From Rhodospirillales bacterium URHD0017 (GTDB taxonomy: Bacteria > Pseudomonadota > Alphaproteobacteria > Reyranellales > Reyranellaceae), in the NCBI GenBank assembly GCA_900110395.1, contig FODP01000029.1:1-64000 (forward strand): a DNA stretch of 64,000 nt, written 5' to 3'. The position numbers and the translations under genes are program-made. The number at the start of each line of letters is the position of its first letter. Position 1 is the stretch's first letter. The notes under the pieces are model-generated. The model did not search any database. It was not told the DNA's origin and saw only the letters and a program-made list of their open reading frames with translations. Below are positions 11,154 through 49,430 of this stretch, piece by piece.

Positions 11154-11228
<75 letters not shown>

Positions 11229-34620: not shown

Positions 34621-35895
34621 CCTCGCCGCGAAAGATGTGACGAAAGAGGAAAGACGACGGACACCTTCGTCTATGTCGTCATATGGCACGGCACTAAAGG
34701 ACAGGCGCATCGCCCTGTCGTGCGCGGTTGCAAACGCAAAGAGCGACAACGGTACGGTGATTACGTCTACCGTTGCCGCACATTCCCGCATAGTTTGCAT
34801 GCTGAACTCGAACGGCACGTGGACAGTGACAAAGAAGCCCCCCTCCGGTCTGTTCCAGTGCACGCCTGACGAGTCGCGAGGAAATCTGAAGTGGCGCTCC
34901 ATTGCGGCAAGCAGAGCATCCCGCCGCCCGCGATAGTGATCGGCGAGCACTGCAACGTGTGCGCCCAGCCTATGGCCTTTTTCGATCAACTGAGCGGCGA
35001 GCGTGGCTTGCATTAGTGGCGACGTATTGATGCTCGATAAGCTCTTGGCTTTTGAGGCCACTTCCGACAGGGGCACCACCCTGCCGGACAGCGACACCTC
35101 GACGTCACCGCTGAGATAGCCGATGCGCAGACCAGGAAACAATGTCTTGGAGTACGAGCCCAGCAACACGACTTGCTCCGGATCGATGGCCTTCAGCAAA
35201 GGCGGGGGCGCGCCTTCATACCGCAGCATGCGGTAGGGAGAATCCTCGAATATCAACATATTCTCACGCCGCGCCAGGGCACACAGGCGTTGTCGCGTCT
35301 GCAACGAGGTCGTATTGCCGCTCGGGTTGTCGAAGTCGGGGATCGTATAGAGGGCGCGTGGTACTTTACCCTCGCGCCGCAACGCCTGTATCGCCATCGA
35401 GAGTTCGTCTAGGTCGGGTCCATCGGCTCGAAGACAGATAGGTACGGTTTGGATACCCAACAGTTTCGCCGCCGCGGTAATGCCTTGGTAAACTGGCTCG
35501 GTTGCCACGAGAACATCGCGCGACGGCGTGAACAGCGTCAGCAGCAGAATGAACATTGCTTCCTGGCAGCCATTCGTGATCACCAGGTGCTCCGGGTCAA
35601 TCGTGAGCCCTTCGTCTTGCAACAGCTGGCGCGCAACATGATGGTGAATTATCCCGTTGGTGCGACCATATTGAGCGATCTCGTTGAGGGCCTTGTCGGT
35701 CGCCAAGCCCGGCTTCCCTAGAATGGTGGGCGCGTGCTTGCGCAACAGTTCAAGGCTTTCGTCGACCACAAAGAGGTCCGCTGAGGGACGGCCGGGAGCG
35801 AACGAGATAGCCTGCGGATAGCGCTCGACTATCTCATTGAGAAAATGCATCGAATCGAGGATCGGCTCACCCAAGCGTTCCGAAACGTTCAGCAT
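34591..35895 (-). CDS. PLP-dependent class I/II aminotransferase
   Basis: 434 residues. Fold type I aminotransferase: YGRTNGIIHHHVARQL, TNGCQEAMFILLLTL, PDFDNPSGNTTS, the PLP Lys in SYSKTLFPGLRIGY and the C-terminal Arg region AMRLSFSAV. It is closest in layout to the 2-aminoadipate/valine-pyruvate (MocR C-terminal domain) group but lacks a GntR DNA-binding domain. It probably makes a non-standard amino acid precursor for the assembly line from a keto acid. It is convergent with the last NRPS gene and divergent from the dioxygenase gene. Confidence 0.88.
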   Translation of the reverse strand: MLNVSERLGEPILDSMHFLNEIVERYPQAISFAPGRPSADLFVVDESLELLRKHAPTILGKPGLATDKALNEIAQYGRTNGIIHHHVARQLLQDEGLTIDPEHLVITNGCQEAMFILLLTLFTPSRDVLVATEPVYQGITAAAKLLGIQTVPICLRADGPDLDELSMAIQALRREGKVPRALYTIPDFDNPSGNTTSLQTRQRLCALARRENMLIFEDSPYRMLRYEGAPPPLLKAIDPEQVVLLGSYSKTLFPGLRIGYLSGDVEVSLSGRVVPLSEVASKAKSLSSINTSPLMQATLAAQLIEKGHRLGAHVAVLADHYRGRRDALLAAMERHFRFPRDSSGVHWNRPEGGFFVTVHVPFEFSMQTMRECAATVDVITVPLSLFAFATAHDRAMRLSFSAVPYDDIDEGVRRLSSFVTSFAARSGSRLGIPA

Positions 35896-36071
35896 TCGGC
35901 TCCCCTTGGTTGTCTTTTCAACCTAGAGGAGAGTATCACTTTCTCCGGGTTCTTCAAGGAGGCCGACGATCGTACGTCGAGACGCACGCAATGCGGAAGA
36001 GACTTGCAACTCTCAACGTGAGGCGCCATCAACGGACTACGTTCGGTAGGCTCCCTTTGACTTTGAGAGGG

Positions 36072-36773
36072 ATGAAGGGACTCGATGATGGCGCTGCAAG
36101 GAATTTTCGGAACAATGGCGTCGTCGTTGTTCGCCGGTTTTTTGATCAGGGCACAATCACCAAGATGACTAGGGCTCTTGAAGCCTATCAACATGAGACG
36201 GTGTCTCGTCTGCCCAATAGCTTCTACGTTCGCGAGGCAAACAGCAAGGAGCTGCGCGGCCTTTGGTGGATGAACATATTTAGTCCATTCTTCGCTGATC
36301 TGCTTCAGGCAGAACCTCTCCTGGACTGCGTGTATTTTCTTACCGGCTGGCAGCCAAGACCGATGTTCGTGGAAGCTTTCATGAAGCCAGCCCAATGCGG
36401 CGGCCGCATCCCGCTCCACCAGGATATCGCCTACAGCGCAGTGTCGCCGCATCAGCAGGCGACAATCTGGGCGCCGATTGATCGCGTAAGGATCGCAAAT
36501 GGCGCCGTCCGATACCTTGCCGGATCGCATAGGGACGGGTTGAAGTCGCATCGAATGAGCGACGTGCACGGAAGCTCACTCGAAGTAGACGGGGACATTG
36601 TGGCATCCGCAAGATATCCAGAAGTCGTATACGAACTGAATCCTGGCGATATCATTGTTCACGACGGTCTTACTATGCACTACAGCAACGCCAACAACAG
36701 TCAAACGCGCCGGCGCGCCATTGCCCTTGGATATCGCGGTCATGGCACTGGATTCTCGGAACTAATAATCTGA
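36072..36773 (+). CDS. Phytanoyl-CoA dioxygenase-like Fe(II)/2-oxoglutarate oxygenase
   Basis: 233 residues from the ATG at 36072; ATG 35991 and TTG 35910 are in-frame alternatives that add residues outside the family core (ARNFRNNGVVVVRRFF normally lies near the start). Iron ligands are LHQDIAYS (HxD) and the His in TMHYSNAN, with the 2-oxoglutarate Arg in QTRRRAIAL. The Asp of HxD is present, so it is a hydroxylase type rather than a SyrB2-like halogenase. It is the last gene of the cluster and probably hydroxylates an amino acid or the finished product. Confidence 0.85.
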   Translation: MKGLDDGAARNFRNNGVVVVRRFFDQGTITKMTRALEAYQHETVSRLPNSFYVREANSKELRGLWWMNIFSPFFADLLQAEPLLDCVYFLTGWQPRPMFVEAFMKPAQCGGRIPLHQDIAYSAVSPHQQATIWAPIDRVRIANGAVRYLAGSHRDGLKSHRMSDVHGSSLEVDGDIVASARYPEVVYELNPGDIIVHDGLTMHYSNANNSQTRRRAIALGYRGHGTGFSELII

Positions 36774-36929
36774 GATGTTTGGTCGCCACGCGACAGGGAG
36801 CATGGCACGCCCAACCGTAAATCATAAAAATCTTTGGATCGTCTTAGACTTCCTTATGTCTTCCAGCGGCTGACTAGACACTCCACGGGAATGAACAGCG
36901 TATCCTGCAGCTCGATTTGCGATGGCAAT

Positions 36930-37728
36930 TCAGCCACCCCTCTCTTCCTGCTCTTTCCTTCGTAGACGAAACTCGCTGGATTGTTGGGCAGAATCCAAAG
37001 CGCTGCCGCAGATGCGCAAGGCCTCCGCATCGGCAACGGGCAGGGCGGCGTCGATCCACTGGCGACAGCTGGCAGAAAGAAACGTCACTTCATCGCCGTC
37101 CACGAGCTGCACAAAGGCGGCAATCTCGTCGCGGTGACGCCGGTGGTCCGCGGCAGAAATGTGGGGTCACCTCGTTCGTTAGGCTCGGCATAGAAGTAGA
37201 ACAACACAGGCCGGCGGGACAGGCGCCATGCTTCGGTTACCAGGCCAAAGGCGTGCTTGACGAGATGCGCGGCGTCGAGGTGACGAAAGCACAGTTCACC
37301 TGAGCGAAGCGCGTCGCGCATCGCGGCGAAACGGTCCATCAGCCCGCCCCACACCGGCCGATCGTAGGCGGACGACAGCGAAACCGTTTTGGCGTCGCGC
37401 AACGGCTCAAAGCGTTTTGACTCGACGCCGACTAAGTGGGTCGCCGTGATCACCACCGCGTCAAGCCAAGGGTGACGCCCGCCCGACCACGGCAATCGCG
37501 CGCAATACTCCACCTCGACGCGATCGGGCGTACCCATCGCTCCGGTGCCAGGTAGCGGCGGCAAATCCATCGGGCGCTCGATAGACCACCCGAAGGCATT
37601 CCCCGCCAGCGCGGCCGAGCTTACCGGATGAGCGAACTTTCCGCTGCCGACCTCGTCACCGCCGGCGGCGGCAAGTGGGCGCAGACTTGCGCTACGGGCA
37701 CGCCGGGAAGGAACGGGTTCTCGGTCAT
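36930..37728 (-). pseudogene. PD-(D/E)xK endonuclease, frameshifted (PGN_0703-like)
   Basis: The gene starts at the ATG at 37728 (MTENPFLPGVPVAQV), which has an AAGGAA ribosome-binding site and overlaps the previous stop (ATGA). The frame changes near 37,690 to LAAAGGDEVGSGKFAHPVSS, LPWSGGRHPWLDAVV and VESKRFEPLRDAK (Asp and Glu-x-Lys of a PD-(D/E)xK nuclease). It changes again at the G-run 37163-37166 to SAADHRRHRDEIAAFVQ, ending at 36930. Each break is repaired by adding one base to a C/G run. It is therefore either a recent pseudogene or an intact gene with sequencing errors. Such nucleases are found in defence islands. Confidence 0.7.
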
Positions 37729-38537
37729 TCTTTCCTTCCAACCCTCCAAGAAATGCGGTTGTCGAGTGCGCCAAGCAACGTGTCGTCATTGCAGGTCGAG
37801 GAGCCGACCAGCCGTTCGTCGAGCGCGTGAAAGGCGAACGTCATAGTGACGCCTTGCGCTTGGCCAAGCGCACGACATCCTCGGTCCAGCGCAGCCTCAA
37901 GCTCGGTGAGGTCGTAACGCGTGTAATAGTCCATCGGAGCCAACACCCTCAGATCGACGTGATCGGCCTCAAGGATTGCACTCTTTAGGCTGGGCGGGTA
38001 TGCGCGGGCGAGCAACCATATACAGCCGTAGCCTATGATCTCAATCGCGGCATAGAGCGGTGTATCGCTGGCGATCTTGAGCTCGATCAGCTCGAAGTGC
38101 CGCTCCCCGCACTGGTGGGCGAGGTCAATTGCGCGGCGCCCATCCGCGGCGCCGGCGATCAGTCCCGAGGCGACGGGCACTTGGTTAGCCCAGTCGGTGC
38201 GGCCAGTACGCCCGCAGGCTGCGGCAATCGCACGTTCCAACACTACCTCAGGACTCGTGTTATGCGCGGCGATCTGCAGCTGGGGACGCGGCCAGCGCCA
38301 GTTCTCCTGCGACCGATCACGATTGGTGGCAGCATCCCCACGCTTGTAATTGTCGACAACTGTTCGGAAGACCAGGTCGACGAGATCCTGATCGGTGGTC
38401 AGCTGCAGGTCGCGCATCGCCGAACGATGCCGCGTGCTGGCGATTCCCAGCGCGCTACGGACTGCCTCCTCTACGTGCTCAATCAACGACCTTGGAGTGC
38501 CTGAAGCAGTTCGGTTGATCTCTCGGCTTTTCCGCAC
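37725..38537 (-). CDS. Unknown protein with a nuclease-like D...ExK pattern
   Basis: 270 residues. The middle contains RRAIDLAHQCGERHFELIEL followed by K, that is an Asp and, 14 residues later, Glu-Leu-Lys on successive strands. This is the pattern of the PD-(D/E)xK core, followed by a helix (AAIEIIGYGCIWLLA). The N-terminal region is basic and helical. No family was recognised. It overlaps the next nuclease gene by 4 bases (ATGA), so the two probably work together. It is divergent from the 38732-44260 operon, with about 190 bases between them for two promoters. Confidence 0.65.
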   Translation of the reverse strand: MRKSREINRTASGTPRSLIEHVEEAVRSALGIASTRHRSAMRDLQLTTDQDLVDLVFRTVVDNYKRGDAATNRDRSQENWRWPRPQLQIAAHNTSPEVVLERAIAAACGRTGRTDWANQVPVASGLIAGAADGRRAIDLAHQCGERHFELIELKIASDTPLYAAIEIIGYGCIWLLARAYPPSLKSAILEADHVDLRVLAPMDYYTRYDLTELEAALDRGCRALGQAQGVTMTFAFHALDERLVGSSTCNDDTLLGALDNRISWRVGRKE

Positions 38538-38731
38538 TTAGCTCCTCTCGGCCTGTCGGGTGGCAAACGTCTACTGCGCCGCGGTGCTCCAAACCGTACC
38601 TCTGACTATGCGTCGATGCACCCTTCATAGGGCTATTGCGACGCGATATCATCGGCATATCATCGGCGAATCCTTGGTTGACCTCGCCGGCTGATGGCTT
38701 CAATTGAGAATACGACATTCTTGTCGCGCGC

Positions 38732-40129
38732 GTGCTAGCGAGAACTTCGGTGACCTCGGCTCAAGATGCTCGATTGGAGGAGCCTCGCACCCTCTTTACC
38801 GCTCCCTGGGATCCTATCGTCGTCCGGCGTGGGGACGCGTTGGGCTTGGGTGCGCTCACTAATGTTTTCGCAGAGGGGGTCGCGCCCGGGTTGAGCAATC
38901 GCGTCACCGACGGACGCTGGATCACCGTCCTCGCCTGGTGCCTCGATCGATCGCATCACGTCTTCCACGCGAGCGGCGGACGATCTCTCGAATCGCGGTC
39001 TGACCAAAGCAAGCGGTACCGCTGGCTTCGCCCGCTCGAATTGATGTGGGTAGCCCGGACCACGGCGCTCGCTGTCGATACCCGAGACCGTCCACTGCCG
39101 GGACGCAGGCGGGTGGAACCCTGGTACCGGCAGTATGACGAGAACGGCAAAGCCCCCAATCGTTTCGGTATGTCTATGGATCAGTTCCGTGCGTACCGTC
39201 AGACCGGTGTTTATGGTGGATACCGCGTCGCCTTTCGAAAATGGCCTGGCATGACGGTTGGCGGTGACGGATGGACACCGTCATCGACAACGGCAGCGCT
39301 CGCCAAATGGCTCGATGGCAGACTTGGGCCGGCGCACTGGCCTCCAAGGGCGAGTGGCGACGACGGCGTGTCCACCCAGAGCGCCAAGCGTGGTCGTGGG
39401 GAGGAAGATCACTGGTGGTTGCGGCACTGGCCGGCTTTCGATGGCCGCGGACGACGCGTAGACGATACCCTCCCGCGACAAAGGACCGATTACTCGGTGC
39501 TGCCAGAGGCCGACCTCCTGAGGCCGCCGATATTCGGTAGGCACCCGTCCGGAAACAGAAGGCGGGAGGTGGCGCTTCAGATCGCGCGATCTTCGGCCGT
39601 GAACCACGCCGGAATTTGCGAGCATCTGGGTAGCCATTTTCGGCATGAGCCTGAAACGAGCCTTCTGCCGGCTTTCTCCCGCCTGGCCGATGCGGGCATG
39701 GATGCGATGGGCTTGGTGGCGAAGGTGCTGACTGACAAGAGCAGCGTCAGTTTGGAAGAGGTTGCTAGTTTCCCCGGAGCGGTCGCGATCTGCAACAAAT
39801 TGCACGCCGCCTCTAAGGAATGGCGACGTCGAGCCACCATAGACATGCGCCATATTCAGACGGCCCATTTGTTTGCGGGCGCCATCAAGAGCGGCTCTCC
39901 CGGCGATTGCCTACGCGAGTTGCTCCGACATCACGAAAGTCACGGCGGCGGGCTGCGCTGGTTCGTGCTTCGCAAGGACAAGGTCGAGCCGCGCGTACCC
40001 CCCGGTTCCAACGCGTCGGGGTACGGCTTCCGCCTTTATTCTCTCTGCCGCCTTGCCGCGCAGTGCGGAGTGATAAGAGGAATGCCGGCTGCGTTGCGCG
40101 ACGCCGACGAGACGGAATTGGACGAGTAG
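38732..40129 (+). CDS. Unknown protein, first gene of the Tdp1-like/helicase operon
   Basis: 465 residues, not assigned to a family. The N-terminal part (about 35-200) is rich in Trp and Arg (FRKWPGMTVGGDGW, LDRSHHVFHASGG). The C-terminal third is helical (IDMRHIQTAHLFAGAI, CLRELLRHHESHGGGLRWF). There is no signal peptide or membrane segment, and no nuclease, ATPase or methylase motif was found. The gene ends 10 bases before the Tdp1-like gene, so it is part of a compact three-gene operon. It could be the specificity or target-recognition component. The start is uncertain; this one uses the full open frame (TTG/CTG-type start near 38732). Confidence 0.65.
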   Translation: MLARTSVTSAQDARLEEPRTLFTAPWDPIVVRRGDALGLGALTNVFAEGVAPGLSNRVTDGRWITVLAWCLDRSHHVFHASGGRSLESRSDQSKRYRWLRPLELMWVARTTALAVDTRDRPLPGRRRVEPWYRQYDENGKAPNRFGMSMDQFRAYRQTGVYGGYRVAFRKWPGMTVGGDGWTPSSTTAALAKWLDGRLGPAHWPPRASGDDGVSTQSAKRGRGEEDHWWLRHWPAFDGRGRRVDDTLPRQRTDYSVLPEADLLRPPIFGRHPSGNRRREVALQIARSSAVNHAGICEHLGSHFRHEPETSLLPAFSRLADAGMDAMGLVAKVLTDKSSVSLEEVASFPGAVAICNKLHAASKEWRRRATIDMRHIQTAHLFAGAIKSGSPGDCLRELLRHHESHGGGLRWFVLRKDKVEPRVPPGSNASGYGFRLYSLCRLAAQCGVIRGMPAALRDADETELDE

Positions 40130-40139
40130 GGGGCACTGA

Positions 40140-42131
40140 ATGGGGCACGGAAAAATGTCCTGGGAATCTCTTTTGGAAACCCAAGCGCCAGCGGAGTGCT
40201 TCCTGAAGGCGGCTCTGTTCACCACTTACGACCGAGCCGACGAACGCTTCGTCGTTGAGCATCTGCTGCCCTTGTTTCTCAAACTGGGCCACGAACACGA
40301 CGGCGAAAGCGCAGAGCGCCAATACTTTCTGCTTGAACTGGATCGCCGCCTTCAGGAAATCCACGACCGCATCGTGATCGTATCATCCACGGCCCGCGAG
40401 GAACCGCGGGCATCGGACGATAGGAACGAGCGGCCGGGCGCCACCTACGATTGGATCTGGCGATCGATCCGTCATTTGACGGTCGGCAGCGCACGAAAAG
40501 CCGTGCAACACTCGAAGCTTTGGCTTCTCCATTGGGGAAGCGCCGACGAGGACACAGATGAATATCTCGAGATCGTTATCTCCTCGGCAAATCTCACGCG
40601 GCCGGCCTTTCAGAGCCAGCTGCAGGCGGGATGGCGCGCATGCATCGCGCTTCAGCCTCAGCGCTCGGAAAATCGACTGGCCAAATGGGGTGTCCTGCCA
40701 GCCTTCTTGGAAGAACTGGGAAAATCTGCCGGCGAACCGCAACGCGTGCGAGCGTTCACCGAATTACTGGCGCGGGTGGAGTGCCCCAAGGACACGACGT
40801 TCCTCGCAAGCGTTCCGGGCATTTACTCCCGAAAGGAGCTTCATCGTAGGCCATGGGGCGCGGCGGGACTTGCGAGGATCGTTCCAGCAGGCAAGTCAAT
40901 GACGACGATCTCCGTTATTAGCCCATATGTCGGCTGGTGGACCCTCTCCTCTCTCCGGCGCTGGTGCGCTGAGGCCGGCGGATCGCCGAACCGGCTTGAG
41001 TTGGTCTGGATCGACAAGGACCACGCGTGGACGAAGTACTGGTGTCTGCCAAGGAGCACTGCAGAGCTATTGATGAAGTCGAAGGGTTCGATCAGACGAT
41101 ACACGAATGAGAGTGGCGAGCGCGTCGGTTTTCATGAAGAGCATCGCGCGGAGGATCCGCGTTGGTGCCACGCGAAGCTATATCATCTGCGGCGCGGTAA
41201 TTCGCGACGGCTCTTGGTTACGTCCGCAAACTTCAGCACTGCGGCTTGGGGGAACGAAGGCCGGAAGGGTGTCTGCGTGATCGAAAACTTCGAGCTGGGT
41301 GTGTGTATCCCTGTCGGTCCTGACGATTGGCCTTTCGACAATCTCGAATGCTTCGAAAACCCAAACGACATCGCAACCGTCGCGGTGGTGCCCTCGCAGT
41401 CGTCTAATCTCATCGCTTGGGCGAATGCAACCTGGGACGGAAAGACGATACGCATCGACTGCCGATGCGCCCAGGTCTCCGCGCTCTCCGGTGAATTGCG
41501 CGCCGGGTCGCATCGTGTACCGGTTAAGACATGGCGCCAAATCCCGGGTAGCAGCGTGTCCACTGCGAAGGTTGCCTACACAGGGTCCTGGGAACCGCCC
41601 TTCGCGATGGATCTGAAATGCCGGAATGAACACATCAGCGTGCCCATCTTTGATGAAAGATCGCAGGGCGAACGCGAAATGACCCTTCCACCGGAGGTCG
41701 ATGCTGAACTTGCGCAACTCCTGCGTGACCAGTTGCTGTTCGAGCAGTATGGCGGACGTATCGCGCTTGAGGACCCTGACACGGACATTCCCGACGCCGA
41801 CGGCGGGCTTGCGGACGGGGAGATTGAAGGCGCTGATGACAAGAACGGCTCAACGAGCCGCAGCCACGACAGCTATGTGGTGCCGTCGTTCGAATTGGCG
41901 CGCCAGCATTTCGAGATCGTCAACAATTGGGCGGCCAGGCTGGAGAAGTCTTCGGGAGCCAACAGTGAAGCTTGGGAGCGCGAATGGCTGCGCCGGGACG
42001 GCGAACTCCTGCTCGACGCCTTCAAACGTAAGTTCAAAGCCGATGGCATCAAAAATTCCTCGATCGCGCTTCCGAGCCGACTGGCGGCCGAAGAACTCGC
42101 CGTTCGATTGAAATACTTTCCCGAGGCATGA
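40140..42131 (+). CDS. Tdp1-like PLD-superfamily phosphodiesterase
   Basis: 663 residues. There are two PLD half-motifs of the HxK...N kind rather than HKD: QHSKLWLLHW followed by VISSANLTRPAF (about 122-158), and WCHAKLYHL followed by LLVTSANFSTAAWGNEG (about 342-372). SVPGIYSRKELHRRPWGAAG and FELGVCIPV between and after them also match the layout of tyrosyl-DNA phosphodiesterase 1, which removes proteins or adducts from DNA 3' ends. The last 150 residues are acidic and then helical, and are not part of that family. It overlaps the helicase start by 4 bases. Function as a DNA-end nuclease or phosphodiesterase in defence or repair is inferred. Confidence 0.8.
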   Translation: MGHGKMSWESLLETQAPAECFLKAALFTTYDRADERFVVEHLLPLFLKLGHEHDGESAERQYFLLELDRRLQEIHDRIVIVSSTAREEPRASDDRNERPGATYDWIWRSIRHLTVGSARKAVQHSKLWLLHWGSADEDTDEYLEIVISSANLTRPAFQSQLQAGWRACIALQPQRSENRLAKWGVLPAFLEELGKSAGEPQRVRAFTELLARVECPKDTTFLASVPGIYSRKELHRRPWGAAGLARIVPAGKSMTTISVISPYVGWWTLSSLRRWCAEAGGSPNRLELVWIDKDHAWTKYWCLPRSTAELLMKSKGSIRRYTNESGERVGFHEEHRAEDPRWCHAKLYHLRRGNSRRLLVTSANFSTAAWGNEGRKGVCVIENFELGVCIPVGPDDWPFDNLECFENPNDIATVAVVPSQSSNLIAWANATWDGKTIRIDCRCAQVSALSGELRAGSHRVPVKTWRQIPGSSVSTAKVAYTGSWEPPFAMDLKCRNEHISVPIFDERSQGEREMTLPPEVDAELAQLLRDQLLFEQYGGRIALEDPDTDIPDADGGLADGEIEGADDKNGSTSRSHDSYVVPSFELARQHFEIVNNWAARLEKSSGANSEAWEREWLRRDGELLLDAFKRKFKADGIKNSSIALPSRLAAEELAVRLKYFPEA

Positions 42132-44260
42132 TGCCGCCGATCAACCCCTTAAGCCTTTCGGCGCGGCGATGGGAATTCCTGTCTAACCCTGACCGATATG
42201 TGGCCGCAACCGAGCACTCCGAGCGCAAACTCGTCGTCGAAAGTACCCGCCGCCAGTTCCTGACGGCGAATGACATTCTCGCGCGGCTGAATGGCAGCTT
42301 CGGAAAATCTTCCCGACGGGGACTCCTGCTCGCTGACGACGTAGGTCTCGGAAAGACACCGATCGCGGCTTTGGTCGCATGGGTCGTCGCCTCTGCAGGG
42401 GACGGGCGTTCTGTGCGCATCCTGGCGCCGAACAACGTGATGATGCGGCGCTGGGAAGAAGAGCTGCTGGCGCATGTTGAACCATTGCAAAAATGTGCCT
42501 CCCATCTCGACGTCCGCAGAACCCGCGTCAAGGTCGGGAAGGTTGGCAAGCTTCGCGCCGGATCGATTCAGGTTGCCAAGCATTCCTATGCCGCTTCGAA
42601 GCAACCCCTCAAATGCAGTCTGCTCATCATCGACGAGGCGCATCGTGCCAAAGGCGACAAGACCGAGTTTCGAGCCGCATTGAAGAAGCAGCGCAAGCAC
42701 GCCGATCGTGTGCTGATCCTCACGGCGACGCCGTTCAGCATCCGGCTGGAGGAACTTGTCGGACTACTGGACCTGATTGACGCTCCAACGACGGTCAAGA
42801 GTCACGTGCGTACCTTCAGTCGCGCTCTCGACGACCTCTATTTCGGCAATACCGCTCGACGTGCCGAGGCCGTGGCCGGGCGCCTTGCCGCCAAGGCTGC
42901 GGCCACGCTGGAAGAAATCGCACCGTTTGTCATCCGCCACGCTGCCGACGACCTCCCGCTAGAGCAGCACAGGTTCGGAGCGCGTGCCGATTGGCCGATG
43001 CAGGTGCCGCATGCAACGGCGGAAGAAGAAGAGCTGATTCTGCGGATGGACCGCGCGCTACGAATTGCTGGTCGAACGGGAGCGGCGCGGAAGATGACCA
43101 ACGATCCGCGATTTCACGTCGGATGGCGCCACTACGATTCGGAGGTGCGTCGACTGATGAAGGAAGCGCCTCATCTCCCGCACCCCATCAGGGCTGTTTC
43201 CCAATTGCATCTGGCAGCGATCAAACATCAGCGCCAACGTGTAACGATTCATTCCAAAATCTTCGCTGTCGCTGAACACGTGAAGCGCATCGTGGGTGAG
43301 GAGGAGAAGGTCGTCCTGTTCTGCCACCATCATGCGACCGCGCAGGAACTCGCTGCGCATCTGCATTCAACGCTTCCTGAGATGCGCATGCGACGAACTC
43401 CTGCCAGGAACGTTTGGGAGGCGGCCTGGAAGGAGGCCCTCGCCATTTCTACTGACGGTGTCAACAATGGAAGGCTTCGCGACACCTTCATCCGTTGGCT
43501 CTGCTGCGACCTGATTCGCGCTCAGACCTCGCGTTGGCTGGACGGGAAGCGAGCCGTCGCGGCCGATCTGGCGAGCGCGCTGAACCGCTCACACGCGCGG
43601 CGTTGCCCGGAAGACGGTAGCATCGCCGAAGCGGCGCGCCATCTCTATGGGGCACTTGTCCAGTCCAGATCGAGCCGTGCAGTGCTCAAGGAAGCCGAGG
43701 GAAGGCTCGAGTTGCTGCCCGGCGCGAGCGGCGCGTCCCGCGTGCTAGCCGTTTGCAATCCGAGCGAAGGTCGCAACGAAAGTGACCTATTCATCCACAA
43801 CCAACAGCCAGATACCGCGATCTCCATTTTCAACAGCCCGTTTGGGCCGGACGTGCTGATCGCCACGGACAAGTTGTCGGAAGGTATCGACCTGCACCGG
43901 TACTGCCGACATCTAGTGCACTACGAACTCGATCCGAGCCCCATTCGAACTGTGCAAAGAAACGGTCGCTTGCGCAGGGTCAACAGCTGGGCCGCTCTGA
44001 CGGGCCAACCCATCCGCTACGCCTATCCGGCTTTCGGCGGGACACGAGACCACCGGCTGGTGCAGATCATGAAGAAGCGTATCGACAGTTTTTCGCTCCT
44101 GCTCGGCGGCGTGCAGGATTTTGATGTCGATCAGATCATCGATGCCGAGGAAAAGTGGCGCAATGACGTGATACAGCTCGCGAAAAGTCGTCTCGCGATG
44201 ACGGGCCGCCGGCTATGCGCGCGCGATCCGCAAGGGACGCGGGACCATAAGATCGCTTAG
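42128..44260 (+). CDS. SNF2-like superfamily 2 helicase/translocase
   Basis: 710 residues. Motif I is LLLADDVGLGKTPIAAL (about 75), motif Ia ILAPNNVMMRRWEEELL, motif II LLIIDEAHRAKG (about 168), motif III ILTATPFS, and the second lobe has VLFCHHHATAQELAAHL, LIATDKLSEGIDLHRY and PIRTVQRNGRLRRV. About 180 residues are inserted between the lobes. It would translocate on double-stranded DNA using ATP and feed or remodel the substrate of the Tdp1-like partner encoded directly upstream. It is the last gene of the operon. Confidence 0.9.
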   Translation: MMPPINPLSLSARRWEFLSNPDRYVAATEHSERKLVVESTRRQFLTANDILARLNGSFGKSSRRGLLLADDVGLGKTPIAALVAWVVASAGDGRSVRILAPNNVMMRRWEEELLAHVEPLQKCASHLDVRRTRVKVGKVGKLRAGSIQVAKHSYAASKQPLKCSLLIIDEAHRAKGDKTEFRAALKKQRKHADRVLILTATPFSIRLEELVGLLDLIDAPTTVKSHVRTFSRALDDLYFGNTARRAEAVAGRLAAKAAATLEEIAPFVIRHAADDLPLEQHRFGARADWPMQVPHATAEEEELILRMDRALRIAGRTGAARKMTNDPRFHVGWRHYDSEVRRLMKEAPHLPHPIRAVSQLHLAAIKHQRQRVTIHSKIFAVAEHVKRIVGEEEKVVLFCHHHATAQELAAHLHSTLPEMRMRRTPARNVWEAAWKEALAISTDGVNNGRLRDTFIRWLCCDLIRAQTSRWLDGKRAVAADLASALNRSHARRCPEDGSIAEAARHLYGALVQSRSSRAVLKEAEGRLELLPGASGASRVLAVCNPSEGRNESDLFIHNQQPDTAISIFNSPFGPDVLIATDKLSEGIDLHRYCRHLVHYELDPSPIRTVQRNGRLRRVNSWAALTGQPIRYAYPAFGGTRDHRLVQIMKKRIDSFSLLLGGVQDFDVDQIIDAEEKWRNDVIQLAKSRLAMTGRRLCARDPQGTRDHKIA

Positions 44261-44391
44261 ATTCTTCTCAGATGGGACAATCGTCAGCCAAGGCGTGAGA
44301 AATGCATGCACTGCTGCGCGCTCGCATGCCGCAGCGTGCGGTTACTGGTGACACAGGGACTCCTCAGAAGCCACAGCGTTACCTTGTCACC

Positions 44392-44840
44392 ATGCTCCGC
44401 GCACTTCCGTTACAGACTATAGTCGACATCGGCCGGCATGGCCTTGCGCTCGCTGTTCACTGCCCGACCTGTCACACGACGCGCAGCGCCTCGACGGATG
44501 ACCAAGTTGGCGACATCGGCTCTTTGCGACCGCTCGCCTTCGCTGCACGTTCGACCGGTTCAAAGGTCACCCATGCCGGAGTCGTGGCGTGCCGAAAATC
44601 CGGCCGCATGAGCTGCTGATTGTCGGCGGCCCTGTGACGCTCGCTTTCCTGACGTCCCCTCGTTACATCTGGGAAATCGACCAGGCGCAACTTGACAAGC
44701 CGCCGTGGTTCGGCGCCACAGATCACTATCGCTGCCCTGGCTGTGGCGCCGCGTGGAATGGCACATCCATGGGCCTGCGTGGCGGCCGGGCGGTTCTAGC
44801 TAGTGCTGCTAGGCCGCCTTCTTCTCCGGCGGGCGCATGA
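44392..44840 (+). pseudogene. Possible broken zinc-ribbon gene
   Basis: One frame gives MLRALPLQTIVDIGRHGLAL then VHCPTCH, ending in a stop at 44619. A second frame continues with RCTFDRFKGHPCRSRGVPKI, HELLIVGGPV and YRCPGCGAAWNG to 44840. The order of Cys pairs is like the intact zinc-ribbon protein at 48862, so this may be one gene split by a frameshift. No single frame explains the whole stretch. Bases 44261-44391 hold nothing recognisable. Confidence 0.35.
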
Positions 44841-45462
44841 CGATGGCGTCGTCCGGCGCCGGCTTCTGCATCGCCAGCGCCTCCTCGAGTGAGCTGCCAT
44901 GCAGCCAGCGGTCGATGTCGTCCGACGTCATCAGCAGGACCGGCATCGCCTTCTCGTGGACCGGCTCGACGATGCCGTTCGGCTCCGTGGTCATGATCGA
45001 GAACAACGTGTGATCGCCGACCTTGGGCGCCTTCTTGGTCCCTCGATCACCCGTCCACGGGCGCCAGATTCCGGCGAAGAAGAATGGCTGTCCATCGGCG
45101 CGCTCGAACCAGCGCCACTCCTTTGACCCTTTGGGCGTGTTCTTGTCGGGTTCGGCGAAGGCCGACGCCGGCACGACGCAGCGATGTTTACGATCGAGCC
45201 AGTCGCGCCATAGCCTGTTGTTTAGGGTCCGGAAGTTGGTGCCGAGGCCAGCGCCCGCCTTGAATGGCGGAAAGCCCCACAGCATTTCGCGCACCACGCG
45301 CTGGTCGTCCTGGTCGACGACGACGGCCGCCTGATGGTTGGGATAGACGTCGAGCGTATCGTTGCGCGTGCTCATGACCTCGGCCCATTCCCGGCCGATC
45401 AGCCTGTGATGCTGGACCAGGTGCCGCACTTCCCACGGCCTGAGCGTATAGAGATTGCACAT
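44809..45462 (-). CDS. SRAP-domain protein (YedK/HMCES family)
   Basis: 217 residues. Cys2 (MCNLYTL) is the residue that forms a thiazolidine cross-link with abasic sites in single-stranded DNA after removal of the initiator Met. Other family features are PNHQAAVVV, LWGFPPFK, NFRTLNNRLWR, the acidic residue in VVPASAFAEPD and the His in EPVHEKAMPVLL. It protects abasic sites from error-prone repair. It faces the ligase and other DNA-handling genes in this region. The region seems to be island cargo rather than an SOS operon; no LexA box was identified. Confidence 0.92.
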   Translation of the reverse strand: MCNLYTLRPWEVRHLVQHHRLIGREWAEVMSTRNDTLDVYPNHQAAVVVDQDDQRVVREMLWGFPPFKAGAGLGTNFRTLNNRLWRDWLDRKHRCVVPASAFAEPDKNTPKGSKEWRWFERADGQPFFFAGIWRPWTGDRGTKKAPKVGDHTLFSIMTTEPNGIVEPVHEKAMPVLLMTSDDIDRWLHGSSLEEALAMQKPAPDDAIVMRPPEKKAA

Positions 45463-45482
45463 GACGAAAACCTAGCACGACC

Positions 45483-45965
45483 TCAATGCGGCGGGCTCGC
45501 TTTGTCCGGCATGTTGGCAAAGGCGACACGAAACGCCTTCTCGAATCGCGTCCTCAGTTCCTTCTTTGTCAGGCGAGGATTGCAGGGCACGGTTGCCACC
45601 GCTTCCAGCAGGGCAAAGTCCATGGTCTGCCGCTCATCGTTGCGCCACTTGGCGTACTTGGGACCGTCCGCGATCGGCATCACGTTCTCGACCCGCCAAA
45701 GGAAGCTGATCCTGCGGGCGTCGTCGGTGAACAGCTTTGCCGCGGCATATACCGCTCGACTCATCGGCGTGTCCTCTAGCGGCTGAAGCTTCCCTGTGAT
45801 GGCGTCGTTGTACTCGGTCGGAAAATCCGGATCGCGGGGCAGCAAGCCAGCCAGACCATGAAGCAAAGTCGCATAGCCCTTCTGGAATTCCATGACGTCG
45901 AGTGGCACGAAGTCGCCCCGCTGGCTACCTGGTGGCAACTGGTGGAGCGAAAAGTCCTTGCTCAT
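45483..45965 (-). CDS. Unknown cytoplasmic protein
   Basis: 160 residues from the ATG at 45965 (MSKDFSLHQLPPGSQRGDF); a longer form from 46025 is possible. It is helical, with conserved-looking segments MEFQKGYATLLHGLAGLLPRD and ARRISFLWRVENVMPIAD, and has no motif that could be assigned. It ends 20 bases before the SRAP gene start region and could be cotranscribed with it. Confidence 0.55.
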   Translation of the reverse strand: MSKDFSLHQLPPGSQRGDFVPLDVMEFQKGYATLLHGLAGLLPRDPDFPTEYNDAITGKLQPLEDTPMSRAVYAAAKLFTDDARRISFLWRVENVMPIADGPKYAKWRNDERQTMDFALLEAVATVPCNPRLTKKELRTRFEKAFRVAFANMPDKASPPH

Positions 45966-46063
45966 GAACCGAATATGGCGTCTTCCCACAAAGCTCGCTA
46001 GCGACAGGTTCGGCACGTTGTGCATGCACTGCCAGCAAGTGGCAGACGCGTTAGAATGCCCTC

Positions 46064-46306
46064 ATGGCAAAAGACACTGTTCGCGCGATCGAGAAAATCC
46101 TGGGCGAGGCCGACCGTTTGATCCGCCGGCGACTCGGTGAGAGCCATCTTGAGGTCGCTCACCTGGTCATCGCCGTCACACCGGAGGGCGAGGTCGTATT
46201 GCGGAGCAATGTGAGCCCGGATGTTCTACTGTCGTTCGGTGACGACCTGAAGAATGTCGCTGACGAACTGGAGGCGCCACCTAAACCGGGCGACACGACG
46301 CACTGA
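46064..46306 (+). CDS. Small protein of unknown function
   Basis: 80 residues, ATG start. It is charged, with a helical first half (VRAIEKILGEADRLIRRRLG) and a likely beta segment (VAHLVIAVTPEGEVVLRSN). There is no Cys, signal or membrane segment. It is divergent from the gene at 45483-45965. Not recognised. Confidence 0.5.
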   Translation: MAKDTVRAIEKILGEADRLIRRRLGESHLEVAHLVIAVTPEGEVVLRSNVSPDVLLSFGDDLKNVADELEAPPKPGDTTH

Positions 46307-46374
46307 ATGATGGTATCAGGTCCCGCCTCCACGTTGCGGCTTGCGGAAGCGCGCGCTTTGCCCATATCGAGCTG

Positions 46375-46530
46375 ATGACCCCCTCCGAAGCAGCCCTTTT
46401 CCATCGTTTGGCCGCACTGAATGCCGCACTCGACAAAGCCGGCGTGGTCGAGCCCAATCTCAAAATGATCAGGCTCTTACGGAAGCTCGAACGACATTGG
46501 TCTTGGACGGCGGAAGATCAGAAACGGTGA
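46375..46530 (+). CDS. Very small putative protein
   Basis: 51 residues from the ATG at 46375: MTPSEAALFHRLAALNAALD, then a basic helix with RLLRKLERHWSW. The amphipathic helix character and fit to local codon use suggest coding, but the ribosome-binding site is weak. It follows the 80-residue gene by about 70 bases and converges with the ligase gene. Confidence 0.4.
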   Translation: MTPSEAALFHRLAALNAALDKAGVVEPNLKMIRLLRKLERHWSWTAEDQKR

Positions 46531-46552
46531 CGCGACGGCCGTTGTCGATAGG

Positions 46553-47554
46553 CTAGCGCTTCCGACGCGGATGCGGCGTGGGCCGCACAACTTGGCGCGC
46601 CGGCTTGTCCTCACGCTGCGCCTGATAGGAGACCTGCCTCAGAAGGTTGTCCTCAGTCCAAGTCAGGTAGGTTACCTCCACAACTAGCTCGGGCTTCACC
46701 CAGTGCACCTTGGAGAGCTTCGGGGGCGCGCCGAAGCGGCTGTCACGCGGCGGCGGCTCGGCCAGCGGCATCTTCGCCACCTGCAGCGGCGTCAGCACGC
46801 CGGACAAGCGCTTCAGCTCCTTGTCCGTGATGCCGGTGCCGGCACGGCCGGCGTAGTGCAGCCGGCCGTCCTCGGTGTAGTAGCCCAGCAGCAGGGCGCC
46901 GAGGTGCGATCGGCTTCCCTCCGGATCTGTCCAGCCGATGACGATGAACTCCTCGCGATTCAGGCACTTCGACTTGACCCAGATTCCTCGATCACCAGGA
47001 GCGTATGGCCGATCGATCCGCTTGGAAATGACGCCTTCCAGGCCCAGCTTGCAGGCGTGCTCGCGAAAGCGGGGGCCGTCACTGACGACGTGCTCGCTAT
47101 AGCGCAGTCCGTGGATTTCGTTCTTGAACAGTCGTTTCAGCTGCTCTTTGCGCTTGATCAGCGGCAGTTGAGCCGTGTCCTCGCCATTCAGGCACAGCAG
47201 GTCAAACGCAAAGAAGAACAGCTGATCCGTGTGCCCTTCATCCATGGCGGCCTGAAGCCGGCTGAAAACTGGTACGCCGTCTGAATTGAGAGCGCAGAGC
47301 TCGCCATCGACATAGGCATTCTTCACCCGAAGCGAGCCAAGCGCGTCGATCGTCCGGCGGTACCGATGCGACCAGTCCAGCCCGGTACGCGTTAGGAGCT
47401 GGATCTTGCCCTCATCGATCCGGGCATGCATCCGGTAGCCGTCGTACTTGATCTCATGCAGCCAATCCTTGCCCGTAGGCGCTTCGTCCACCAGGCGCGT
47501 GAGCTGCGGCTTGATCCACTTGGGTCGCCGAGATGTCGTTCCCACAGGAAGCAC
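46553..47554 (-). CDS. ATP-dependent DNA ligase (LigC/LigD ligase domain type)
   Basis: 333 residues. The active-site Lys36 is in HEIKYDGYRMHA (motif I, KxDGxR). Motif III is around YVDGELCAL, motif IIIa FFFAFDLLCL, motif IV LEGVISKRID and motif V GIWVKSKCL. An OB-fold domain follows (FIVIGWTDPEGSR, LHYAGRAGTGI, EVTYLTWTEDNLLRQVS). This is the ligase used with Ku in bacterial end joining, here without polymerase or nuclease domains and without a Ku gene in the window. It would seal nicks using ATP. A short copy of its C-terminal segment appears at 50081-50125. Confidence 0.93.
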   Translation of the reverse strand: MLPVGTTSRRPKWIKPQLTRLVDEAPTGKDWLHEIKYDGYRMHARIDEGKIQLLTRTGLDWSHRYRRTIDALGSLRVKNAYVDGELCALNSDGVPVFSRLQAAMDEGHTDQLFFFAFDLLCLNGEDTAQLPLIKRKEQLKRLFKNEIHGLRYSEHVVSDGPRFREHACKLGLEGVISKRIDRPYAPGDRGIWVKSKCLNREEFIVIGWTDPEGSRSHLGALLLGYYTEDGRLHYAGRAGTGITDKELKRLSGVLTPLQVAKMPLAEPPPRDSRFGAPPKLSKVHWVKPELVVEVTYLTWTEDNLLRQVSYQAQREDKPARQVVRPTPHPRRKR

Positions 47555-47650
47555 TGGAACATATTCCGCCGGCAGGGCAAAGGCGCTGCGTATGGCCGTT
47601 CCAACAGCTTGCAGTACTCTGCGGTGCGGATATCAACGGCGGGCATGGGA

Positions 47651-47829
47651 TCAACCGCACTTACGCGCCGCAATCGTGTGCTCATCGGCAAGGCTCACGT
47701 CGGCCGAATCGTTCCAACTGTTCACCCACGTGTCGACCACGGACTGGACGTCGGCCCGATCGCGGACCGTGAGGATCGAGTCGTTGCAGATGAACCAACT
47801 TGTTGGCCCTTCGTCTCGTCTATGGGCAT
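47651..47829 (-). pseudogene. Possible small gene with one frameshift
   Basis: From the ATG at 47829 (MPIDETKG) the frame closes quickly. Adding one G to the GGG run near 47,814 joins it to a coding-like stretch with GPTSWFICNDSILTVRDRAD and SVVDTWVNSWNDSAD, ending KCG-stop at 47651. No family was recognised. The rest of the gap between the ligase gene and 48137 (about 570 bases in all) shows no convincing gene. Confidence 0.3.
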
Positions 47830-48136
47830 GGCACGGTAATGCCGCAACATTGGCGGCGTTCCATTAGGGACCGATTGCCAAGGCCAACGTGCACTGGCGC
47901 TCGCGCTTGCTCTGTAACCTCGAAGCGCGTCGGAAGGGCGTCTGCGCGGGGTGCAGGAACCGCCAGCAATCAACCGGCGCCGGCATCCGACTGCTCTGTC
48001 AGAGGCCAGGGCCAATTGGCAGTTCCCAACCCCTAGCGCCTCGCCTCGGCAAACTGGATCTGCTTACCCAAGGTCTAGTGGATTGACTCTCGATCGGAAT
48101 GTTCTCATTTTGTTCTCATGATTGGCTTTTGTGAGG

Positions 48137-48859
48137 ATGACGATGCTGATCCTTCTCTTGCCGTTAACGACAATCGTGGTTGCCCTTGTGGGCTTCTATG
48201 TCTGGCATCGCCAACTCGTCCGAAAGCGGCACTTTGAAGTCGCGGATGCCGCGTTGTCCGCGTTCCGTCAGGCCGAGGCCGCAATTGCGCATGCTCGTCG
48301 GCCCAACGTCGTCGCAGGCGAAGGCGCAACTCGGAAGCGCGGGCCTCTCGAGTTGCCCGCATATGGCGGCCTGCTGGATCGTCTGTACATCCCCGTGGAG
48401 CGTCTCAAGCTTCACAGCAACGCGTTCGAGGAGCTCGAGCGAGCCGCTGTCAACGTTGAGGTCCATTTCGGCATCGACGTAGCGCGCCAGCTTCGTGAAC
48501 CTCTCCGGGTCCGTCATCGGATAGTCGTAGCGACTGCGTGCCGGATGGGTAGCGTGGGCCTTCCCACAGAAGCCAAGGTTAGTCGCGCGTTGGTCCGACG
48601 ATGGGAAGCCGTGGCGCACGCGGGGACAGTAGCGCCCGACGACGTTGATCAGCTTTCAGTCGACATGGGCGAAGCGAAGTGGGCTGTCGAGACAGCGCTG
48701 CGGCCTTTCGTGGAAGCGCCAACCTTCAGCGAGTTTCTCCTCGTGCATGAGCTTCCGTCGGCAGTACGCCGCGCCTTGCACTGGGCGCGTCCAGGCTACG
48801 GGAAAATCGCGATCTACGCCGCCGTCCCATTGGCTGAGCGCACTACTGACGACCCATAG
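48137..48859 (+). CDS. Single-pass membrane protein of unknown function
   Basis: 240 residues from the ATG at 48137 (GAGG just upstream). One N-terminal membrane helix (MLILLLPLTTIVVALVGFYV) is followed by a helical cytoplasmic part: RKRHFEVADAALSAFRQAEA, then a region rich in Arg and Val (RHRIVVATACRMG). No motif was recognised. It lies two bases upstream of the zinc-ribbon gene, in a run of four small genes on the plus strand. Confidence 0.6.
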   Translation: MTMLILLLPLTTIVVALVGFYVWHRQLVRKRHFEVADAALSAFRQAEAAIAHARRPNVVAGEGATRKRGPLELPAYGGLLDRLYIPVERLKLHSNAFEELERAAVNVEVHFGIDVARQLREPLRVRHRIVVATACRMGSVGLPTEAKVSRALVRRWEAVAHAGTVAPDDVDQLSVDMGEAKWAVETALRPFVEAPTFSEFLLVHELPSAVRRALHWARPGYGKIAIYAAVPLAERTTDDP

Positions 48860-48861
48860 CC

Positions 48862-49101: not shown

Positions 49102-49104
49102 GCC

Positions 49105-49419: not shown

Positions 49420-49430
49420 GGAGGCGTCAG

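What the first reader, a model, noticed from the sequence alone, without database searches (positions are those of the whole stretch)
38732..44260. Operon of an unknown protein, a Tdp1-like phosphodiesterase and an SNF2-like helicase
The middle protein has two HxK...N half-motifs with SANLT/SANFSTAAWG segments and a PWG-containing linker, the pattern of eukaryotic tyrosyl-DNA phosphodiesterase 1, not of ordinary HKD PLD nucleases. It overlaps the helicase gene by 4 bases and follows an unassigned 465-residue gene by 10. The neighbours are two PD-(D/E)xK-like genes and a conjugative module. A Tdp1-like enzyme coupled to a translocase suggests a defence or DNA-end processing system that I cannot match to DISARM, BREX, Dpd, Mokosh or another named system.
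Basis: partly seen in the sequence, partly recalled or inferred. Interest (0 to 1): 0.8.

Follow-up and report, generated by a model that had tools for sequence, protein, structure and literature searches.

The report
Azaca-like operon with Tdp1-type nuclease
Three bacterial genes on a mobile DNA element look like a very distant version of the Azaca anti-phage system, and the middle one has the fold and active-site pattern of the eukaryotic DNA-repair enzyme Tdp1.

Summary
The operon is real and at the stated coordinates. Its middle protein is Tdp1-like: Pfam Tyr-DNA_phospho 57.1 bits, cut-off 22; the first 31 Foldseek rows and first 28 VIA-align rows, Z 18.7-20.9, are all Tdp1. 'No named system' is only partly right. 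Profiles without the window proteins recover gene 1 at E 7e-6 (narrower profiles only 0.02-0.06), gene 2 at 1e-18 and gene 3 at 2e-32. They come from an A-B-C operon family holding Azaca (PADLOC ZacABC), the candidate PDC-M27, and a third type whose first gene PADLOC does not match. Among 80 fetched helicase loci, B adjoins C in 22 and all three are recognised in 17. The window operon falls outside the Azaca and third-type clades in a helicase tree and fails the ZacA test, so it is Azaca-like, not Azaca. Likely role: ATP-dependent DNA restriction by translocase (C), metal-independent phospho-histidine nuclease (B) and recognition or assembly subunit (A). Activity is untested. New variant of a known kind.

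The parts
38732..40129 (+). Gene A (P0001, 465 aa): probable diverged relative of ZacA/DUF6361 and PDC-M27A; mostly helical by prediction, function unknown
   Evidence: Profile of 22 A proteins without P0001: E 7.1e-6, 22.4 bits, best decoy E 1.3. Narrower 7-row profiles: E 0.02 and 0.056. No meaningful Pfam or PADLOC hit of its own. Model pLDDT 61, no PDB match at E up to 0.001
38795..38962 (+). A N-terminal conserved segment (residues 22-77)
   Evidence: hhalign to the seven-sequence third-type A profile: score 34.1 against a maximum of 26.3 in 300 shuffles
39890..40084 (+). A C-terminal conserved segment (residues 387-451)
   Evidence: hhalign score 34.3 against a maximum of 23.4 in 200 shuffles
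40140..42131 (+). Gene B (P0002, 663 aa): Tdp1-fold PLD-superfamily phosphodiesterase, residues 1 to about 407, plus a C-terminal region not matched
   Evidence: PF06087 1.9e-15; Foldseek ranks 1-31 Tdp1; VIA Z up to 20.9 over 309 residues; 14-sequence B profile without P0002 E 1e-18
40509..40592 (+). B first half-site H124-x-K126 ... N151
   Evidence: H124, K126, N151 invariant in 22 B proteins; no Asp at K+5 in any of 22
41169..41294 (+). B second half-site H344-x-K346 ... S362-x-N364 ... N383-x-E385
   Evidence: All six invariant in 22 B proteins
42128..44260 (+). Gene C (P0003, 710 aa): SNF2/DEAD-like SF2 translocase, compact form
   Evidence: SNF2-rel_dom 1.1e-17, Helicase_C 5.3e-7; ZacC 1.3e-21; 7-sequence C profile without P0003 E 1.6e-32
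42332..42358 (+). C Walker A (ADDVGLGKT)
   Evidence: D70, V72, G73, G75, K76, T77 invariant in 8 C proteins
42632..42643 (+). C Walker B box DEAH
   Evidence: D169, E170 invariant in 8 C proteins; sequence
43829..43978 (+). C signature FNSPFxPxVLIAT...QRxGRxxR (motifs V-VI)
   Evidence: F568, P571, F572, P574, L577, E585, G586, H590, C593, H598, P605, Q610, R611, G613, R614, R617 invariant in 8 C proteins
38538..38731 (.). Intergenic gap between the divergent pair 37085-38537 (-) and the operon; possible promoter region
   Evidence: Coordinates. Two promoter-like matches here, against 1.4 expected in the whole scanned region: not significant

Best explanation
A mobile, far-diverged member of the Azaca-type superfamily of three-gene anti-phage operons. 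Shown by computation: three adjacent genes related to A (ZacA-like, the weakest link), B (Tdp1-fold PLD with two HxK...N half-sites and a conserved NxE) and C (SF2 translocase). Inferred: C hydrolyses ATP and moves on double-stranded DNA; A helps to choose or hold the target DNA or assembles the complex; B, whose two half-sites lie in one chain, cleaves DNA through a covalent phospho-histidine intermediate without metal, when translocation stalls or meets the target. In this respect it would work like the ATP-dependent PLD restriction enzymes SauUSI and CglI/NgoAVII.
For: All three proteins are recovered by profiles built without them: A E 7.1e-6, B 1e-18 and C 1.6e-32. With 7-row profiles that hold neither window proteins nor the loci searched, B adjoins C in 22 of 80 loci and A-B-C are recognised together in 17 of 80; in the other five an ORF lies in the place of A, and two of these (L061, L067) are PDC-M27A by PADLOC. 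Named plasmids L040, L041 and L044 carry DUF6361 / hypothetical or PLD / helicase; L042 has the PLD and helicase genes but only a short DUF6361 ORF set apart. PADLOC's best families for B and C are ZacB and ZacC. H, K, N, P, H, K, S, N, N and E are invariant in 22 B proteins, and the B profile is nearest by sequence to SauUSI (4.4e-6) and BfiI (1.2e-5). Third-position GC is 0.68-0.71 in the five genes of 37085-44260 against 0.78-0.88 in five other genes measured. Among 91 ORFs flanking the 22 loci, PADLOC families for DrmD-like helicases, type I restriction enzymes, WYL and GajB-like helicases match 3 members each (25 of 283 families shown; no matched control).
Against: No phage or cleavage data. 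Gene A gives no hit to ZacA or DUF6361 itself, only E 0.02 and 0.056 with narrower A profiles, and nothing in the own genome at E up to 10 with the third-type profile. B and C match ZacB/ZacC with 47 and 75 bits, where the full member L024 scores 578 and 1147. Close relatives of the operon as a whole were not found: 0 confirmed in genome contigs, no other full-length hit among 146 and 385 related genomes, none in plasmids or phages. The tree has P0003 as the longest branch, with unsure placing.
Confidence: 0.6

Rival explanations
1. DNA-end repair cassette: B removes tyrosyl-linked or other adducts from DNA ends (as eukaryotic Tdp1 does), C strips or moves along DNA, and the neighbouring SRAP and ATP-dependent ligase genes serve the same pathway.
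For: B is closer to Tdp1 than to any other solved structure listed. SRAP at 44809-45462 and an ATP-dependent ligase at 46553-47554 lie just downstream.
Against: SRAP and the ligase are on the opposite strand and have different GC3 (0.86 and 0.78 against 0.68-0.69). I did not search other A-B-C loci for these two genes. A and C point to Azaca-type operons.
Confidence: 0.2
2. Defence that targets protein-linked DNA: the Tdp1-type B acts on phage or plasmid DNA ends that carry a covalently attached protein (terminal protein, relaxase or topoisomerase), so that what is recognised is an adduct and not a sequence or methyl mark.
For: P0002 and one other of 22 B proteins match PF06087 at E up to 0.01. 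P0002 has Thr before the conserved Ser-x-Asn where the other 21 have Gly. The fold match is to Tdp1 and not to the restriction PLDs, which rank 37th (SauUSI), 40th (BfiI) and 42nd (NgoAVII).
Against: No substrate data. The B family as a whole is nearer by sequence to restriction PLDs than to Tdp1. The model was built on a B-family alignment.
Confidence: 0.12
3. Chance or element-maintenance operon: the genes serve the mobile element (entry exclusion, DNA processing during transfer) rather than defence.
For: Coupling protein (Pfam) and Trb-like genes (read by eye) at 52.9-63.9 kb in the same window.
Against: About 9 kb to the conjugative genes and different GC3; relatives of A-B-C occur in genomes of many phyla (tree leaves). 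Whether those have conjugation genes nearby was not checked.
Confidence: 0.08

Closest known systems
Azaca (ZacA-ZacB-ZacC; PADLOC PDLC03828-03830)
   Same: Gene order, strand and tight spacing; DUF6361-like first protein (remote), PLD protein with two HxK half-sites, SF2 helicase with the FxxPFxPxxL / QRxGRxxR signature.
   Different: P0001 gives no hit to ZacA or DUF6361; P0002 and P0003 score 47 and 75 bits where the full member L024 scores 578 and 1147; the helicase is 710 residues instead of about 980-1,180; P0002 matches the Tdp1 family.
PDC-M27 A-B-C (PADLOC candidate)
   Same: Three-gene order; protein sizes in L045 (461 and 668 aa) close to genes 1 and 2 here; helicase 74.5 bits.
   Different: No match of P0001 to M27A or of P0002 to M27B at E up to 1.
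Third A-B-C type, first gene not matched by PADLOC (L046, L050-L055)
   Same: L049-L055 are the best P0003 relatives; the A profile shares with P0001 an N-terminal and a C-terminal segment.
   Different: Forms its own clade (8 rows, 100/99) without P0003; L046 also carries a DrmD-family helicase gene. P0001 reaches only E 0.02 with this profile.
Eukaryotic Tdp1
   Same: PF06087 above cut-off; fold, Z up to 20.9 over 309 residues; two HKN half-sites in one chain.
   Different: 14-20% identity in the structural alignments; extra C-terminal region; sits in an operon with a translocase and a ZacA-like protein.
SauUSI, CglI/NgoAVII, BfiI (PLD restriction enzymes)
   Same: PLD nuclease working with an SF2 ATPase (SauUSI, CglI/NgoAVII); SauUSI and BfiI are the nearest solved sequences to the B-family profile.
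   Different: SauUSI and BfiI are homodimers with one HxK per chain; SauUSI has a fused target-recognition domain; CglI/NgoAVII have a methyltransferase partner. None of this was seen here.
DISARM (DrmC, DrmD)
   Same: DrmC and DrmD profiles match weakly.
   Different: Far below NCBIfam cut-offs (27.9 of 133; 86.7 of 610); no methyltransferase, DrmA or DrmB match among the neighbouring ORFs that I scanned with Pfam.

Membership tests
Azaca | First gene ZacA / DUF6361 | tested here: not met
   No hit of P0001 to PDLC03828 or PF19888 at E up to 1; only a remote match to a mixed 22-row A profile, E 7.1e-6, and 0.056 to a 7-row, mostly DUF6361 profile
Azaca | Second gene ZacB, PLD protein | tested here: inconclusive
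   ZacB profile 46.9 bits, E 4.4e-13, profile positions 15-326 of 586; full member L024 577.6 bits; no PADLOC cut-off is shown by the tool
Azaca | Third gene ZacC helicase | tested here: inconclusive
   ZacC is the best PADLOC family, 74.9 bits; full member L024 1147 bits; PDC-M27C practically ties at 74.5
Azaca | Gene order A-B-C on one strand, tightly spaced | tested here: met
   compare the coordinates
Azaca | Anti-phage activity | not testable with these tools
   Needs phage challenge
PDC-M27 | M27A and M27B proteins | tested here: not met
   No hit at E up to 1 for P0001 or P0002, while the A and B proteins of L045 and L067 give 2e-55 to 3e-278
Tdp1 (PF06087) | Family profile above gathering score | tested here: met
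   57.1 bits, cut-off 22
Tdp1 (PF06087) | Two HxK...N motifs, no Asp of HKD | tested here: met
   HKN motifs of Tdp1 as described in PMC6895789 (passages)
Tdp1 (PF06087) | Tdp1 fold | tested here: met
   Foldseek ranks 1-31, E 1e-12 to 3e-10; VIA Z 18.7-20.9, next family 15.9. Model pLDDT 59 overall; 30 of the first 40 ten-residue blocks are at 61-92
Tdp1 (PF06087) | Auxiliary catalytic Gln and Glu (recalled) | tested here: inconclusive
   P0002 has Gln 11 after N151 and E385 21 after N364; the Glu is invariant in 22 B proteins, the Gln column is filled only in P0002; Tdp1 spacing recalled, not from a call
Tdp1 (PF06087) | Phosphotyrosyl-DNA hydrolysis | not testable with these tools
   Needs enzyme assay
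SauUSI / CglI-NgoAVII type | One HxK per chain, nuclease site at a homodimer interface | tested here: not met
   Two half-sites in one chain; SauUSI description in PMC7913695 (abstract and passages)
SauUSI / CglI-NgoAVII type | Methyltransferase partner gene (CglI/NgoAVII) | tested here: not met
   None among the ten window ORFs scanned with Pfam nor P0004, P0005; not every window ORF was scanned; CglI described in PMC4267653 (abstract and one section)
DISARM | DrmA/DrmB core with methyltransferase | tested here: not met
   DrmD and DrmC matches far below cut-off; no such neighbour among the ORFs scanned

The most novel reading that the evidence does not exclude
A defence system whose nuclease is a true Tdp1-type enzyme that recognises or releases protein covalently bound to invading DNA (phage terminal protein, relaxase, topoisomerase). 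Eukaryotic Tdp1 would then have bacterial relatives inside Azaca-type immune operons, with P0002 as an intermediate between the two.
Probability: 0.1. Interest if true: 0.85.

Novelty: new variant of a known kind. Interest (0 to 1): 0.5.

Why it matters
Azaca is listed in a recent review as a system of unknown mechanism (PMC12926258, passage). The comparison here joins Azaca, PDC-M27, a third type whose first gene PADLOC does not match, and the window operon into one A-B-C superfamily. It gives ten columns invariant in 22 B proteins as mutagenesis targets, and for the window protein a Tdp1 fold, so the cleavage chemistry becomes directly testable. Pfam's Tdp1 family matched only the own genome in samples of 385 genomes of the class and 299 of the phylum, so a bacterial Tdp1-like protein in an immune-type operon is unusual in its own right.

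Tried and rejected
Close relatives of P0002: one-sequence scans of genome contigs (16 pattern matches, none confirmed) and viral contigs (1 pattern match, none confirmed), tblastn in plasmids (none) and phages (none), 146 relatives (own locus plus one marginal hit at 9.7e-4) and 385 class genomes (own plus one marginal hit at 7.6e-4). P0001 in plasmids: none. P0003 in viral contigs: no pattern match; in phages 2 short matches in unannotated records, not followed. With the helicase alignment, 80 viral-contig loci were kept of 92, one of which (L159) holds A and B.

Genes 37085-37789 and 37725-38537 as part of the system: rejected. The first has 3 plasmid records with relatives; I viewed two and saw no A-B-C among the annotated genes (PLSDB tables are incomplete and one stretch is cut by the record end). 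The second has no plasmid relative.

Fold of P0001: best PDB match E 2.7; the A5 profile against PDB sequences gave only weak, unrelated-looking hits, best E 0.0079. BFVD gave nothing at E up to 0.001 for P0002. phmmer of P0002 alone against the PDB gave no Tdp1. Rfam found nothing in 34000-50000.

A control for the defence-island count was prepared but not scanned, because many control loci looked like restriction loci themselves; the flanking-gene result is therefore descriptive, and its ORFs are longest-ORF picks that may include spurious ones.

Results against my reading: the third-type A profile gave P0001 only E 0.02 and nothing in the own genome; a 7-row, mostly DUF6361 profile gave 0.056. 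The profiles each contained one window protein among 8 rows, and those (A4, A5) contained most of the sequences that they then found, so the clean count is that: B 22 of 80, A-B-C 17 of 80 (not recognised as A: L050, L054, L061, L063, L067). L063, which I had put with PDC-M27, has no PADLOC hit for its A and stands apart in the tree. The tree warns of long-branch joins for P0003.

Literature: the ZacA/B/C search listed 20 of 504 papers, none relevant; DUF6361, PDC-M27 and ZacABC gave no paper. The link ZacABC = Azaca came from recall and was supported (28 papers hold the word, 25 listed, most not about phages). No listed row on phage defence held 'tyrosyl-DNA phosphodiesterase' (20 of 214 listed; 8 of 1,175 listed), and a search for bacterial Tdp1 phrases gave one paper, on the human enzyme. 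The original Azaca paper (Millman et al. 2022, as cited) was not seen.
Full report
OBSERVATION. The three ORFs exist exactly as described: 38732-40129 (465 aa), 40140-42131 (663 aa) and 42128-44260 (710 aa), all on the + strand, with a 10-base gap and a 4-base overlap. Codon-position GC supports all three as coding. The half-motifs, SANLT, SANFSTAAWG and PWG are in the protein.

GENE B IS TDP1-LIKE. Pfam gives Tyr-DNA_phospho (PF06087) 57.1 bits against a cut-off of 22, and PLDc_2 14 bits against 27. An AlphaFold2 model from a 22-sequence alignment has mean pLDDT 59; 30 of the first 40 ten-residue blocks are at 61-92, with a weak stretch around 290-340 and a weak tail. It matches human and yeast Tdp1 in the first 31 Foldseek rows, E 1.2e-12 to 3.3e-10, then PLD3, PPK1 and PLD1; the restriction enzymes SauUSI, BfiI and NgoAVII rank 37, 40 and 42. 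In the VIA-align second look the first 28 rows are Tdp1 with Z 18.7-20.9 over 296-315 residues, and the next family is at 15.9. In samples of 385 genomes of the class and 299 of the phylum, PF06087 matched only the own genome, at this gene; none of the 14 control genomes matched.

GENE B ALSO BELONGS TO A FAMILY OF OPERON PLD PROTEINS. PADLOC's best family is ZacB, 4.4e-13. A profile of 14 relatives without P0002 finds it at E 1e-18, 64.3 bits, with the best shuffle at E 0.056. Across 22 members (P0002 and 21 others) H124, K126, N151, P262, H344, K346, S362, N364, N383 and E385 are invariant. None of 22 has Asp five residues after the first Lys, and 4 of 22 have it after the second. By sequence this family profile is nearest to SauUSI (4.4e-6) and BfiI (1.2e-5), with Tdp1 only at 0.40-0.53, and 18 of 22 members match PLDc_2 but only 2 of 22 PF06087 at E up to 0.01. 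P0002 is thus one of two Tdp1-matching members of a family that otherwise looks like restriction-type PLDs, with two half-sites in one chain.

GENE C. SF2/SNF2-type helicase. Best PADLOC families are ZacC 1.3e-21 and, practically tied, PDC-M27C 1.5e-21. A profile of seven C proteins without P0003 finds it at 1.6e-32. It is compact: 710 residues, where the relatives and the A-B-C loci have about 870-1180, with the ATPase and motif V-VI signatures intact.

GENE A. It has no meaningful hit in Pfam, PADLOC, NCBIfam or PHROGs. A profile of 22 A proteins (DUF6361, PDC-M27A-like and third type; P0001 left out) finds it at E 7.1e-6, first among 2,206 sequences (2,000 shuffles of itself, window ORFs including its own, and itself), best decoy E 1.3. 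Narrower profiles are weaker: third type alone E 0.02, best decoy 1.9, and a 7-row, mostly DUF6361 profile 0.056; the third-type profile found nothing in the own genome at E up to 10. Both ends carry the signal: the N-terminal segment 22-77 (score 34.1; 300 shuffles at most 26.3; second-best of 39 window ORFs 23.4) and the C-terminal segment 387-451 (34.3; 200 shuffles at most 23.4). With its place in the operon I take it as a diverged A protein, but this is the weakest of the three links. Its predicted fold is helical and unmatched.

THE OPERON RECURS. tblastn of P0003 in 72,556 plasmid records gave 8 records. I viewed six. Three (L040, L041, L044) are DUF6361, PLD or hypothetical, then helicase; L042 has the PLD and helicase genes with a short DUF6361 ORF set apart; L045 is the PDC-M27 type; L043 has no annotation and showed a helicase with an Hsp70-like neighbour but no A-B-C when its ORFs were read by eye. 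With 7-row profiles that contain neither window proteins nor these loci, B is recognised in 22 of 80, always directly before C, and A as well in 17 of 80. The five others (L050, L054, L061, L063, L067) have an ORF in the place of A; those of L061 and L067 are PDC-M27A by PADLOC, that of L063 has no PADLOC hit, and those of L050 and L054 were found weakly by the profile that included P0001. In addition, the ZacB family itself matched 30 of 289 class genomes at E up to 0.001, six of them at E 1e-116 or better. The loci come from many bacterial phyla and one archaeon (leaves). L024 is full Azaca by PADLOC (ZacA 1.7e-136, ZacB 9e-174, ZacC 0), L045 and L067 match PDC-M27 A and B, and the A proteins of L046, L051 and L053 have no PADLOC hit at the thresholds used.

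PLACE OF THE WINDOW OPERON. In a helicase tree of 39 rows, Azaca-type (15 rows, 100/100), third type (8 rows, 100/99) and control helicases (11 rows, 100/100) are each one side of a branch; three PDC-M27-like rows group (100/100) with L063 apart. P0003 is in none of these and is the longest branch (2.4), so its exact place is unsure. With no hit to ZacA, and B and C scores far below a full member, I do not file it as Azaca but as a separate, far-diverged lineage of the same superfamily.

CONTEXT. The five genes of 37085-44260 have third-position GC 0.68-0.71; folD, rfbA, SRAP, the ligase and trbE have 0.78-0.88, which suggests imported cargo. The coupling protein at 62345-63853 is confirmed by Pfam; the other Trb-like genes were read by eye. 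A tRNA-Gly at 11154-11228 could be the integration site, but no repeat of its end was found and the contig stops at 65,797. Flanks of the 22 loci hold PADLOC-type genes (DrmD-like, type I restriction, WYL, GajB-like; 3 members for each listed family, of 91 ORFs; 25 of 283 families shown), without a matched control.

MECHANISM. SauUSI combines a PLD nuclease, an SF2 ATPase and a recognition domain, and translocates on DNA (PMC7913695, abstract and passages). CglI and NgoAVII split nuclease and ATPase, and cleavage needs ATP hydrolysis (PMC4267653, abstract and one section). By analogy, C would be the motor, B the nuclease and A the recognition or assembly part. This is inference. The metal-independent phospho-histidine chemistry follows from the PLD/Tdp1 active site (established knowledge; HKN mechanism in PMC6895789, passages). 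Azaca itself is listed as of unknown mechanism (PMC12926258, passage).

VERDICT. Observation confirmed; Tdp1 reading supported; 'no named system' replaced by 'remote Azaca-like'. New variant of a known kind.

Noticed in passing
11763-34620: A large NRPS/PKS-type biosynthetic cluster (adenylation, condensation, ketosynthase-like ORFs, read by eye) fills the left part of the foreign region, followed by an aminotransferase and a PhyH dioxygenase (Pfam).
   Followed up: partly
44809-47554 (-): SRAP (HMCES-type) and an ATP-dependent DNA ligase with a small unassigned gene between them, downstream of the operon on the other strand.
   Followed up: partly
11154-11228: tRNA-Gly at the border between chromosomal-looking genes (folD, rfbA, read by eye) and the foreign region: possible attachment site; right end outside the contig.
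   Followed up: partly
37085-38537 (-): Divergent overlapping pair; the first has relatives (63% and 59% identity) on Burkholderia and Qipengyuania plasmids, with no A-B-C among the annotated genes viewed. Probably a stand-alone restriction-like gene.
   Followed up: partly
L046 3267-13992: A third-type A-B-C operon continues into an actin/Hsp70-like gene (read by eye; PDC-M61B 5.1e-6) and a DrmD-family helicase gene (4e-274): a possible five-gene system.
   Followed up: no
L051 11821-13317, L054 4402-6372, L055 11080-12558, L159 664-2178: Genes that look alike by eye (SKS/SKF...C.K near the start, possibly DUF2779/Cas4-like) sit beside A-B-C operons in four loci.
   Followed up: no
L159 2019-9059: A contig filed as viral (IMG/VR) carries A and B matches followed by a helicase gene.
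   Followed up: no
L029 8158-11284 (own genome, contig C14): A second PLD-type protein (456 aa) in the same genome, hit by the ZacB profile at 3.3e-8, beside a gene that by eye resembles those next to L051 and L055.
   Followed up: no
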